Shown: piece by piece, positions 57,604 to 63,377 of the stretch
Position numbering within the stretch: position 1 is the stretch's first letter
Layout: every line of letters begins with the position of its first letter
From: Ichthyophthirius multifiliis
Lineage: Eukaryota; Ciliophora; Oligohymenophorea; Hymenostomatida
Assembly (NCBI RefSeq): GCF_000220395.1
Contig: NW_004087459.1
Location: 1 to 64,000 of the forward strand
Reading direction: 5' to 3'
Length of the DNA stretch: 64,000 nucleotides
The notes under the pieces: generated by a model
What the model saw: the letters and a program-made list of their open reading frames with translations, nothing else
Databases searched by the model: none
What the model was told of the DNA's origin: nothing
Program-made: the position numbers and the translations under genes

Positions 57604-58897
57604 ATGGGTTGTTGCATATCTCGCTATTAAATGTAGAAAGGAAAATAATTAAAAAATTAATATGATAAATATCCTATAAGTAAAGAAAAAAAGCTTTAGA
57701 TTTTAGTAAAAGCAAATATAATTTAAAATATATAAGAAGATGATTAAGAATTTCATACTCCCTTTTAAATAAATAATCATTTACAAAGATAATAATTATT
57801 AGATTTTAATAACTAAATACATAAGGAAGAATATAAAGAACTTTTAAAAAATACAGAACCTTAGTTTACTATACATTTATTAAATTAGAAAACTTTAATA
57901 ATTTCATAAAATGATAATATTGATATTGAATAATTTATAACTGAAGCAGAATAAGCATTAATAGAATATCAAAAAAAATAAGAAGAAGAATATAGAATAC
58001 TTATGTAATGGGATTACTTAGATATTGAGTAAAATTTATATTTTTTCTATTATATTACATAATAAAATATTATAGAAAAGAAATACCTTAAAAAAATTTA
58101 AAAAAATTTAATGAATTTAAAAAATATTACTAATAAATTAAAAATAATACTTTTTTTAATGATTGGTATTTGTTTAGATTTTTAAAAAGCTAATAATATA
58201 ATCTAAACACTTCTAAATAAATGTTAAGTTAACATATATAGTGGTATTAAAAAAATAAAATCTCATATATATTTGAAGACATTTTCAATGAATAATAAAT
58301 GCTTAAAAAGTTAAGTCCTCATGGTTTTCATTTTATAGATTTTTAAGGGAGGCCGATATTTATATGGAGAGTTAAATCTTTTACTAATGATTATATTTTA
58401 TAAATTATAGATAAGGAAAGACTAATTAAATACATAATTTATTATTTAGAAAGATTAATTGTAAATGTATTTCAATTATGTACAGCACTTAAGAAAAAGA
58501 GAATTGATTAAATCGTTTTAATAATAGATTTTAAAAAATGCAAAGCAAAATTAAAAGATATATTAAATGTATTTAATATTATTTAATAAATTGGCTTAAA
58601 TAATTATCCTGAAATACTCAATTAAATATATATACTTAATTAATCTTATATTAAAGACATTAATTTTTCTGAAATAAACAAATTAATTCCTAAGTTCTTA
58701 AATGAGAAAATATAAATACTTGGTGAAAATTATTTGAACTTTATGAGTTAAAAAGTATATAAATAATAATTTTTATTATTTTTTTAAGATTATTTATAAT
58801 TTAAAAGATTCCAATAGAAAATATTCCTAACTTTATGGGAGGAAAATGTAAATGCAATACAAAATACTGTATTAACAATGATTATGGTCCTAATTGA
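57604..58897 (+). CDS. SEC14-like CRAL-TRIO lipid-transfer protein with MGCC N-terminus
   Basis: The CRAL-TRIO_N helix region is DWYLFRFLKS. The lipid-binding domain follows: LSPHGFHFIDFQGRPIFIWR, RIDQIVLIIDFKK, GLNNYPEILNQIYILNQ, then KIQILGENYLNF. The C-terminus reads IPIENIPNFMGGKCKCNTKY, CINNDYGPN, the classic LPxxFGGxCxC...GPW ending. The family exchanges phosphatidylinositol/phosphatidylcholine between membranes and links lipid supply to traffic. The N-terminus MGCCISRYQ has Gly2 and Cys3/Cys4, a textbook arrangement for N-myristoylation plus palmitoylation. About 110 poorly conserved residues lie between it and the domain. An intron at about 58030-58075, and another near 58755-58787 whose phase is off by one in my reading, separate the exons. 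The stop is TGA 58895-58897. Confidence 0.82.
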
Positions 58898-59346
58898 AAT
58901 ATAAAAAAAAAAATTTAGTTTGTATATATGTTTTTAAAATTAAAATATATATATATGTAATATATATATATAAATTAAATATTATAATAAATAAATTAAA
59001 AAATTTTTTTTGAGTGAAATTTAATATTTAAAAACAAAAATTATATAGGAAAGAAAAAAATTGTAAAATATATATTTAATTATAAATAGAAAAATAAAAT
59101 ATGCAATTTAAAATTATAAATAAATATATATATATAAATATTAAAATAAAAAAAAAACATATAAAAAACAAAAATTAAAAAATAAAAAAATAAAAAAAAT
59201 ATTTTTATAAATTATAATAGTTAACATTTTAAATAATAAAAAATATAAAAATAATATACAAAATATAATAATATAATAATATGTAAAAATTAATATAAAG
59301 AATATAAAAATATAAAAAAAAATTATATAAGTAATAAATATATTTT

Positions 59347-60114: not shown

Positions 60115-60150
<36 letters not shown>

Positions 60151-60345
60151 CAGAGAATAAATTAGTTAAAATTTTATTATCTATTTTATTATAAATTCTC
60201 TAAAGTAAAATTATATTATCTTTAAACTGCTTAATTTATATTATTAAAAATTATTTATACTATATTAAATTATAATTTTTTTTCAATTCTTTAACTCATA
60301 AACATAGAATTAATTTTAATAATTCCTTAAACTTTATCAACTATT
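58898..60345. other. AT-rich intergenic region
   Basis: About 1.4 kb between two convergent genes: extremely A/T-rich, with TA tracts (59357-59380, 60119-60146) and T-runs. No gene is recognisable. Confidence 0.5.
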
Positions 60346-61963
60346 TCATATAATGCTATATTTAATATCAACTTATAATTTATAAATAAAGTATATAAAA
60401 TTACCTTCTTCACCTATACATTTAATCTTATCAACAGATAAATATCTTAAAAATTTTGGATTACTATTAATAAAAATAGTTTAACTAAGAAAATTAAGCT
60501 TTTTACATTCTAAAAATATATAAAAATGATATAAATTCTATTAAAAAATATATATTTTACCATCAAGATTAAGTGATTTTAACTATACTATATTACTTAG
60601 TAAATCATTTAAATTATTATTATCAAGATTAGTGTTTTTAAGGCATAAATAAATTAACTTTTTATTATTTCTAAGCTTATGTATATTTTGAAAACTAAAG
60701 TTATTAATATTATTACTTAAATCAAGCCTTTCAAGAGAAACCATAGTAGATATTAGTTCAATACTTTTATCAGTAAGTTCTGGACAATGAGAAAGTTATA
60801 ATATTTTAATATTTTTGCATCTACTACAAATACTATGTAAATCACTATCTGTTATATCACTTTTTTTATTTTTATACATATAATATAAAAAGATAATAAT
60901 AATCTACTAATTGCTTTAAAGTTAAAGATTTTATAAAAGCCTTAAATTAGGTATAAATGAAGAAATTTATGGAGTTAGTTAAAGTGATTTAAGTATTAAT
61001 ATTTTTATTGAATTTCTACTTCGATATAAAATTTAATATAAAATTTTTGTTTTTATATATTGCTGTTTATTTGGATATTTTGATATACAAGCAAATATTT
61101 CAAACATTTTATCAGAAATATTCTAACTATAATCTTTTGATAATTCAGCTTTAAAATAAAATGTATCATATATTTTTTTAATTGAAAATTATCTAAAAAT
61201 TGCTTAAATGAATTTTATATGAGTTAATTCAGAGTTTTTTTATAAGAAGTCATACTCTTATAATGAAATTTTGCTAAAATTAAATTCATGAAAGTACAAA
61301 TGGTAGTTTTTTATTACTTTTAAAGATATTTATCTCCAACATTTACATACTTATTATAAATTTATTATTTCTTTCATTTCTAAAAAACTAAAAATGTCAA
61401 CAATTATTTTATCAGGTAATTATAATCTTTTTTATTTATATAATGTAAATTTAATATTTTATTTAAATACATATAAAAATTTCTAAATTTATTTTTCAAA
61501 TAAAAAAAAAAAAGAAAGAATAAAAAAGAAATAAACATTTTATTTATTTAAATAACTATAATTAAAATTGTTTTACACTCTTGATTCTTTTAAGTTCTCT
61601 TGATTTAATTTTTCTTTTTCTTTGACTTTTCAAATAATTCAAAAATAGAATTTTATTCTAAAACTGAATATTTACTAGGAGTCATAATTGTATTTGATTT
61701 TTATGAATATTCTTTTTTAAAAGAATAGTTTGCACGTGATCTATTAATTTTCTCTACATTGAAATAATCAATTATGCTTTTTTCCGGACTATCTGAAGAA
61801 TTTTGACGTTTTCTCTTTTTTAAACTAATTAATCTGTTTAATCATATATATTTATGGTCTTACTACTATTTATGTTGATATCTTTGCTATCTTCACTTAT
61901 TTTTATAGGCGAGTTATAGTTTTTGTTCTTTTTAAAAAAATGGAGAATTTGTTTTTAAAGCAT
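60346..61963 (-). CDS. F-box/LRR protein with N-terminal PCNA-interaction-like (PIP) motifs
   Basis: The N-terminus MLQKQILHFFKK is a canonical PIP box (Q-x-x-I-x-x-F-F). It is followed by a basic NLS-like KKRKRQNSSDSPEK and two further PIP-like motifs, KSIIDYF and QNSIFELF. After a probable intron (about 61439-61557) comes an F-box: LPDKIIVDIFSFLEMKEII, NLQQVCKCWRQIS. Leucine-rich repeats follow: NIKILQLSHCPELTDKSIEL, MVSLERLDLSNNINN, KKLIYLCLKNTNLDNNNL, LKSLNLDG. The F-box should bind SKP1 and the LRRs a substrate, making an SCF adaptor. The F-box exon has no upstream in-frame ATG of its own, and both parts share a strand, so I join them. Two one-base shifts in A-runs (near 61817 and 61625) are needed. 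If the join is wrong, these are two genes, split at about 61500. The stop is TGA 60346-60348; two further introns lie at about 60376-60411 and 60511-60560. Confidence 0.62.
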
Positions 61964-62991
61964 GTATTTTTTATAAATAAATAATTAAATAATAATTATT
62001 ATTAATTATAATTACTTTTTATTATATAAATTAAATATTATTTAAAAAAAAAAAATTTGAGAAGTTTTTTCAAATTACATAACTTTTAGATAAAATCTAA
62101 TTGTATTTTCTCGCTATTAAAAAAAATTAAATTAATCATTTTACCGCTCTAAAATATAAATTTGAAATATATAATATTTATAAGTTATTTGGTTATATAA
62201 TTTAAATCATTTATTATTTATATTTTATAATAAAAATATTATTTATTTTATATTAATAGATTATATTAATGAATATTTTTCAAACATTTTTTATTAATAA
62301 TATAATTCAATATATTTTTGGTACTTTTTTAAACTGAAATAAAATTATATAATTTATATATTTTTCAAACAAAATATAGTTTTTAAATATAATCTTTAGT
62401 ATATTAGATAATGGGCTTGTATATATTTAATAATTTTATTGAATAATTGCATGATCATTATTCATTAATATAAATTATTTTATTAATATTCTATAATATA
62501 TTAATTTTATATTTAGTATAACATTTTTCTAGAAATGTTTATTAGTTAAAAATATTTATTAAATTCTCAATAACTAATATTAATATAAAAATTTAAGTTA
62601 ATTGTATGGAATTAATATAAAATTTAATTTAATTAAACATAATTTTTTATAAAGTAAATATAAATGGTTTAAATTAATATATATAAAATTATTATTTATT
62701 ATATTTTTTATATATTATTATTATATATAAATATTTTATTAAAGTTGTCTTTATAAAATATATTTAATGTTTTATTCTTTAAACTTAATTTAAACTTAAA
62801 CGTATTATTTAACAAAAATAATTATTTATTTATAATATTAAATAATTTATAAAATATTAATTTAAATCAAAATATATTTTATTTTATTTTTGTTATTACA
62901 ATATATATATAATAATAATAAGGATATAAATTTAAAGGAAATACAAAAAATAATAAAAGAAAGAAAAAAAAAAAAAAAATAAAAAAAAAAA
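61964..62991. other. AT-rich divergent intergenic region
   Basis: About 1 kb of A/T-rich sequence between the F-box gene and the divergent eL37 gene. It ends in poly-A runs (62967-62991) just before the eL37 ATG. No other feature is seen. Confidence 0.5.
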
Positions 62992-63377
62992 ATGGTAAAA
63001 ACATATAAAATATTAATATATTAAATTAAAATAATTTTAATATAAGACAAGAGGTACCCCTTCATTTGGTAAAAGACATTAAAAAACACACACATTATGC
63101 AGAAGATGTGGCAGAGCAACATATCATAAGCAAAAGCTTAGATGCGCCTAGTGTGGTTTCCCAGATGCTAAAACACGCAGATGTATTTAATATATAATAA
63201 ATAAATAATTTTATATTAATTATAATAAAAAGATGATGGATGGGCATAAAAGCTAAGGATAGAGTTGGATAAGGTACTGGAAGAATGAGATATATGAAGA
63301 CTATTGCATGAAGAGCTAAAAATGGATTCAGATCTGGAACAACCGCTTAACCAAAAGCAAAAGCTGTATCAAAATGA
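62992..63377 (+). pseudogene. Ribosomal protein eL37, disrupted (or sequence errors)
   Basis: Three exons encode the small zinc-ribbon protein of the 60S subunit. Exon 1 is only ATG; an intron follows (62995-63046). Exon 2 reads TRGTPSFGKRHQKTHTLCRR, then CGRATYHKQKLRCAQCGFPD, with the four zinc-binding Cys. A second intron (63183-63232) follows, then YDGWAQK. Then a one-base loss in an A-run (about 63246-63250) is needed to reach AKDRVGQGTGRMRYMKTIA. An in-frame TGA at 63309-63311 occupies a position normally Arg, followed by RAKNGFRSGTTAQPKAKAVS and a TGA stop. Two lesions in an essential gene suggest either a decaying duplicate or draft-sequence errors. The protein identity itself is certain. 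Confidence 0.8.

What the first reader, a model, noticed from the sequence alone, without database searches (positions are those of the whole stretch)
60346..61963. F-box/LRR adaptor that appears to carry three PCNA-interaction motifs and an NLS
On the minus strand the first ATG opens with QKQILHFF, which fits the PIP-box consensus Q-x-x-(I/L/M)-x-x-(F/Y)(F/Y) exactly and sits at the N-terminus as in DNA ligase I or UNG2. KKRKR, KSIIDYF and QNSIFELF follow. About 120 nt further on is an F-box (LPDKIIVDIFSFL...VCKCW) and LRRs, with no start codon of its own. If one gene, it would be an SCF substrate adaptor tethered to the replication clamp, which I do not know from any described family. Ciliates replicate two nuclei on different programmes, so a PCNA-coupled degradation adaptor would be of real interest. 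The weak points are two assumed A-run indels and the assumed intron.
Basis: partly seen in the sequence, partly recalled or inferred. Interest (0 to 1): 0.75.

Follow-up and report, generated by a model that had tools for sequence, protein, structure and literature searches.

The report
Ciliate PCNA-docking F-box adaptor candidate
A ciliate gene, shared with three Tetrahymena species, joins a likely docking tag for the DNA-replication clamp to an F-box protein of the kind that marks other proteins for destruction; the docking itself has not been tested.

Summary
Three Tetrahymena proteins (548 aa each) carry the same order: N-terminal PIP box, PIP-like motif 2, hydrophobic motif 3, F-box, leucine-rich repeats.

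Motif 1 (QKQILHFF; QRQIDQFF in Tetrahymena) fits the strict PIP consensus in 4 of 4 proteins at residue 3. Motif 2 (EKSIIDYF; ENSLLNYF) has E for Q. Motif 3 fits poorly and varies within Tetrahymena. KKRKR falls inside a putative intron in the unbroken model and has no counterpart in Tetrahymena, so that NLS is doubtful.

Best reading: an SCF substrate adaptor docked on PCNA, working like CRL4-Cdt2. PCNA binding, SKP1 binding and the substrate are inferred. An F-box protein with a PIP box (FBH1) and an E3 receptor with a PIP box (Cdt2) are known; an F-box/LRR version did not turn up in my searches. Relatives outside Tetrahymena were not found.

The parts
60150..61963 (-). Whole gene, ATG at 61963, TGA stop ending at 60150; 480 aa with five introns
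   Evidence: Unbroken translation of the window letters and global alignment with P0002 (197 identities in 476 aligned positions)
61934..61957 (-). Motif 1, QKQILHFF, strict PIP box at residue 3
   Evidence: QRQIDQFF at residue 3 in P0001, P0002, P0003
61761..61784 (-). Motif 2, EKSIIDYF, PIP-like with E in place of Q
   Evidence: ENSLLNYF in three Tetrahymena proteins; tail YFxVxKIxxSxAN shared
61632..61655 (-). Motif 3, QNSIFELF, doubtful PIP-like motif
   Evidence: QSSILDLL, QSSIMDIF, QSSILEII in Tetrahymena, 4 of 8 positions invariant there
61806..61820 (-). KKRKR in one frame; inside putative intron 61863-61793, so perhaps not translated
   Evidence: the segment around it aligns to the Tetrahymena linker no better than shuffles
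61315..61425 (-). F-box
   Evidence: PF12937 1.8e-10, PF00646 8.3e-9
60430..61020 (-). Leucine-rich repeat region (approximate limits, introns included)
   Evidence: Matches to FBXL2, FBXL17, Skp2; alignment with Tetrahymena
61793..61863 (-). Putative intron 1, 71 nt, GTAAGAC...TCTTCAG, joins frame 1 to frame 2
   Evidence: its GC of 22.5% is exon-like, which speaks against it
61427..61578 (-). Putative intron 2, 152 nt, 8.6% GC, joins frame 2 to the F-box frame; other boundaries possible
60860..60907 (-). Intron 3, 48 nt
   Evidence: Removes an insert against Tetrahymena
60510..60560 (-). Intron 4, 51 nt
   Evidence: Removes an insert against Tetrahymena
60356..60404 (-).

Best explanation
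The gene encodes an SCF substrate adaptor of the F-box/LRR type whose flexible N-terminus docks it on the replication clamp PCNA through an N-terminal PIP box, probably helped by a second, E-type PIP-like motif. The F-box would hand it to SKP1 and cullin 1, and the LRR arc would bind a substrate, so that ubiquitination is restricted to replicating or repairing chromatin, as with CRL4-Cdt2. Shown here: one gene, motif order and conservation with Tetrahymena, F-box, LRR, and SKP1, cullin, PCNA and FEN1 genes in the same genome, FEN1 with a canonical PIP box. Inferred: PCNA binding, SKP1 binding, nuclear location, substrate.
For: Same order in three Tetrahymena proteins. Unbroken 480-aa reading of the window. 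Strict PIP at residue 3 in 4 of 4, expected in 0.024-0.031% of shuffles. F-box above cut-off. LRR nearest to FBXL2, FBXL17 and Skp2. PCNA, SKP1 and cullins in the genome; FEN1 PIP QSRLDNFF. SCF was purified with its Skp1 from Tetrahymena (PMC6562869, passage). E3 receptor with PIP: Cdt2 (PMC6312923, abstract).
Against: No binding data. Motif 2 is off the strict consensus, motif 3 fails it. Motif 2's 8-residue core is 4 of 8 identical to T. thermophila, not above the remainder of that piece (21 of 51). 139 of 172 N-terminal positions are invariant in Tetrahymena, so full invariance of motifs 1 and 2 is weak (2.7% of shuffles). Homologues found only in Tetrahymena. The structure model is poor (mean pLDDT 48.7), the F-box included.
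Confidence: 0.6

Rival explanations
1. An ordinary F-box/LRR adaptor whose N-terminal motifs bind something other than PCNA, such as another nuclear protein, or its own partner; the PIP likeness is incidental.
For: PIP boxes are short; relaxed forms are common, also in the folded part. Motif 3 is not PIP-like in Tetrahymena. No binding data.
Against: Strict PIP with following KK at the same extreme N-terminal place in 4 of 4 proteins; FEN1 here uses the same consensus.
Confidence: 0.3
2. Two separate genes lie close together: a short PIP-bearing protein and an F-box/LRR protein.
For: About 150 AT-rich bases lie between the parts.
Against: One 548-aa gene model in three Tetrahymena species; a GT-AG intron joins the parts in frame.
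Confidence: 0.03
3. The PIP box acts as a degron: the protein is itself a PCNA-bound target of another ligase, such as CRL4-Cdt2, rather than a clamp-docked ligase.
For: FBH1, an F-box protein with a PIP box, is degraded through PCNA and CRL4-Cdt2 (PMC13200063, passage).
Against: Neither the window nor Tetrahymena has T-D inside motif 1, which PIP degrons usually carry (recalled); sequence shown. Presence of Cdt2 in this genome was not tested.
Confidence: 0.07

Closest known systems
Tetrahymena F-box protein P0002 (T. thermophila), P0001 (T. utriculariae), P0003 (T. malaccensis)
   Same: Same motif order, F-box and LRR; window protein 193 to 197 identities in 476 aligned positions
   Different: Longer N-terminal linkers (548 against 480 aa); SNSVFTYL stretch not found in the window protein; named only F-box or hypothetical protein
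Cdt2, receptor of CRL4-Cdt2
   Same: E3 substrate receptor with its own PIP box docking on PCNA (PMC6312923, abstract)
   Different: Cdt2 is a WD40 protein of CUL4-DDB1 (recalled) with a C-terminal PIP; here F-box, LRR, N-terminal PIP
FBH1 (FBXO18)
   Same: F-box protein with a PIP box in a disordered N-terminus (PMC13200063, passage)
   Different: FBH1 is a UvrD helicase with an APIM; no helicase domain was seen here and no LRR is described there
Dia2 of SCF-Dia2
   Same: F-box/LRR protein tethered to the replication fork by its N-terminus (PMC11048390, passages)
   Different: Dia2 is tethered by a TPR domain to Mrc1 and Ctf4; no TPR match here
FBXL2, FBXL17, Skp2
   Same: Best sequence and fold matches of the F-box/LRR part
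   Different: No PIP box known to me in them (recalled, not tested)

Membership tests
F-box/LRR (FBXL) SCF adaptors | F-box domain | tested here: met
   PF12937 1.8e-10 and PF00646 8.3e-9, both over cut-off; PF00646 over cut-off in P0001, P0002, P0003
F-box/LRR (FBXL) SCF adaptors | Leucine-rich repeats after the F-box | tested here: met
F-box/LRR (FBXL) SCF adaptors | Binding to SKP1 and cullin 1 | not testable with these tools
   SKP1 and cullin genes are present; binding needs an experiment
PIP-box PCNA clients | Q-x-x-[ILM]-x-x-[FY]-[FY] | tested here: met
   Motif 1 in 4 of 4 proteins; motifs 2 and 3 do not meet it in 4 of 4
PIP-box PCNA clients | Direct PCNA binding through the motif | not testable with these tools
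   No complex prediction or binding assay available
Cdt2 | WD40 domain | tested here: not met
   No WD40 model at E up to 1 in the window ORFs or P0001-P0003
FBH1 | UvrD-type helicase domain | tested here: not met
   No helicase model at E up to 1
Dia2 | N-terminal TPR domain | tested here: not met
   No TPR model at E up to 1; a very divergent TPR could be missed
Dia2 | LRR that binds Mcm3, 5 and 7 | tested here: inconclusive
   Dia2 is not among the 50 fold rows shown, which does not exclude it

The most novel reading that the evidence does not exclude
Tetrahymena and its relatives use an SCF ligase docked on the PCNA ring by two or more PIP-type motifs as a replication-coupled or checkpoint destruction machine, an independent version of the Cdt2 principle on an F-box/LRR scaffold. 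It could be the unknown ligase behind the S-phase loss of Orc1, or the hydroxyurea-induced loss of Orc1, Orc2 and Mcm6, reported in Tetrahymena.
Probability: 0.15. Interest if true: 0.85.

Novelty: new variant of a known kind. Interest (0 to 1): 0.55.

Why it matters
PCNA-coupled protein destruction is best known from CRL4-Cdt2. An F-box/LRR adaptor with its own PIP box would show the same logic built on SCF, in cells that replicate two different nuclei. It also offers a named candidate for an open question: Tetrahymena degrades Orc1 in S phase (PMC4287346, passage) and Orc1, Orc2 and Mcm6 under hydroxyurea (PMC4517752, passages); the words ubiquitin and proteasome do not occur in the main text of either paper.

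Tried and rejected
Rejected: two separate genes. Gene end at 60346. Two A-run sequencing errors as a necessary assumption: at first I held that no intron could explain the frame changes, by eye; a full listing of GT-AG pairs of 16 nt or more gave 4 choices for the first join (1 of them with a stop) and 8 for the second, and the pair 61863-61793 plus 61578-61427 gives an unbroken protein. The errors stay possible: the published Ichthyophthirius genome rests mainly on 454 reads (PMC3341644, passages), and the first putative intron has exon-like GC (22.5%). Three full PIP boxes (motif 3: 4 of 8 invariant in Tetrahymena). Paralogues in the same genome: none reported (only best candidates are scored there). 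P0005 (E 0.16) is another F-box/LRR protein whose N-terminus starts close to the F-box, without the motifs; P0006-P0009 (E 2.4 to 6.5) were not followed, though P0006 was fetched.

Led nowhere: the AlphaFold model of P0002 on 4 sequences is poor (mean pLDDT 48.7; blocks from about 321 to 440 above 70), so the PIP region and F-box could not be judged. Three protein searches gave no significant homologue outside Tetrahymena; the tool only reaches relatives sharing short exact words. Literature searches showed no F-box/LRR protein with a PIP box in titles or abstract starts; I read passages of eight papers and the outline and abstract of one, no full text; PMC5859106 and PMC10741905 added nothing decisive. 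The PCNA pocket residues were not compared one by one; PIP boxes were sought in 1 of the 5 XPG-type matches.

Full report
What is in the sequence. The window lies in a 45-Mb genome of 937 contigs, mostly 10-23% GC in 2-kb steps, read with ciliate code 6. On the minus strand the ATG at 61963 opens MLQKQILHFFKK in one frame; a second frame gives KKRKR, EKSIIDYFNVEKINRSRAN and EQNSIFELF; a third gives the F-box and LRR part. The F-box is well above the Pfam cut-offs.

One gene. The F-box/LRR ORF found two significant homologues among 7540 candidates, from Tetrahymena utriculariae (P0001) and T. thermophila (P0002); an alignment search over 7988 candidates added T. malaccensis (P0003). All three have 548 aa, start MVQRQIDQFFKK, and carry ENSLLNYF, then QSSILDLL, QSSIMDIF or QSSILEII, then F-box and LRR, the order of the window. 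The window's N-terminal pieces align with these N-termini better than nearly all of 2000 shuffles (2, 0, 1 and 0, 5, 2 reach the scores). P0002 matches only this locus among the candidates scored in the genome (1.0e-49), so the relation looks orthologous.

Gene model. Three small AT-rich introns (60907-60860, 60560-60510, 60404-60356) remove the inserts that the window has against Tetrahymena. The last one moves the stop from 60346 to 60150 and gives a C-terminus that follows the Tetrahymena one. A listing of GT-AG pairs shows that introns 61863-61793 (GTAAGAC...TCTTCAG) and 61578-61427 join the frames. With these five introns the letters of the window give one unbroken 480-aa protein, 197 identities in 476 aligned positions with P0002. 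The segment that the first intron removes, KKRKR included, does not align with the Tetrahymena linker better than shuffles (974 to 1978 of 2000 reach the score). Against this model: that intron has 22.5% GC, while the other four have 8-10%, and Ichthyophthirius introns average 12.3%. At the second join the third-frame reading KLNQENLKESR is somewhat closer to two Tetrahymena proteins (70 and 54 of 2000 shuffles; 924 for P0001) than the second-frame reading (1055 to 1790). So the splice sites need cDNA, but in each reading the PIP motifs and the F-box belong to one protein.

How good are the motifs. Motif 1 meets the strict PIP consensus in 4 of 4 proteins at residue 3; by composition this place is hit in 0.024% or 0.031% of shuffles (the window pool included the disputed segment). 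Between window and T. thermophila, 8 of the first 12 residues are identical, against 12 of 37 in the rest of that piece. Motif 2 has E for Q in 4 of 4; its core is 4 of 8 identical, with its tail 10 of 19, against 11 of 32 outside motifs 2 and 3 in that piece. Motif 3 lacks the aromatic pair and is 4 of 8 invariant within Tetrahymena. Motifs 1 and 2 are fully invariant there, but so are 139 of 172 N-terminal positions, so this is weak (2.7% of shuffles). Relaxed PIP hits also fall downstream of residue 172 (3, 4 and 5).

Partners. The genome has two PCNA matches, one of which matches solved PCNA chains over its length (1axc 5.1e-76); two SKP1 matches, the best 1.3e-15; and 17 cullin matches on seven contigs. 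A FEN1-type gene carries QSRLDNFF, so a canonical PIP box occurs in this genome. In Tetrahymena an SCF ligase was found with its Skp1 (PMC6562869, passage).

Most likely mechanism. F-box to SKP1 and cullin 1, LRR to a substrate, N-terminus to loaded PCNA. That is the Cdt2 principle, where receptor and substrate share PCNA as docking platform (PMC6312923, abstract). Dia2 is nearest in domain order but tethered by TPR to Mrc1 and Ctf4 (PMC11048390, passages). FBH1 is the nearest F-box protein with a PIP box (PMC13200063, passages). By tested features the gene belongs to none of these three; it is an F-box/LRR protein that carries a PIP consensus. Its substrate is unknown; Orc1, Orc2 and Mcm6 are worth testing (PMC4287346; PMC4517752).

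Verdict.

Noticed in passing
62969-63376 (+): Ribosomal protein L37e gene, exon with PF01907 at 7.7e-21, upstream of the F-box gene on the other strand.
   Followed up: partly
58029-58907 (+): CRAL/TRIO domain protein, PF00650 at 1.1e-15, downstream of the F-box gene on the other strand.
   Followed up: partly
P0001, P0002, P0003 residues 134-141: SNSVFTYL, a fully invariant hydrophobic stretch between motif 3 and the F-box in Tetrahymena, without a clear counterpart in the window protein.
   Followed up: partly
L006 and L007: Two PCNA genes in this genome that look almost alike in their first exons; whether they serve different nuclei or stages was not examined.
   Followed up: no
L010 and L011: Two FEN1-like genes with near-equal XPG_I scores; the PIP box was looked at in L010 only.
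   Followed up: partly
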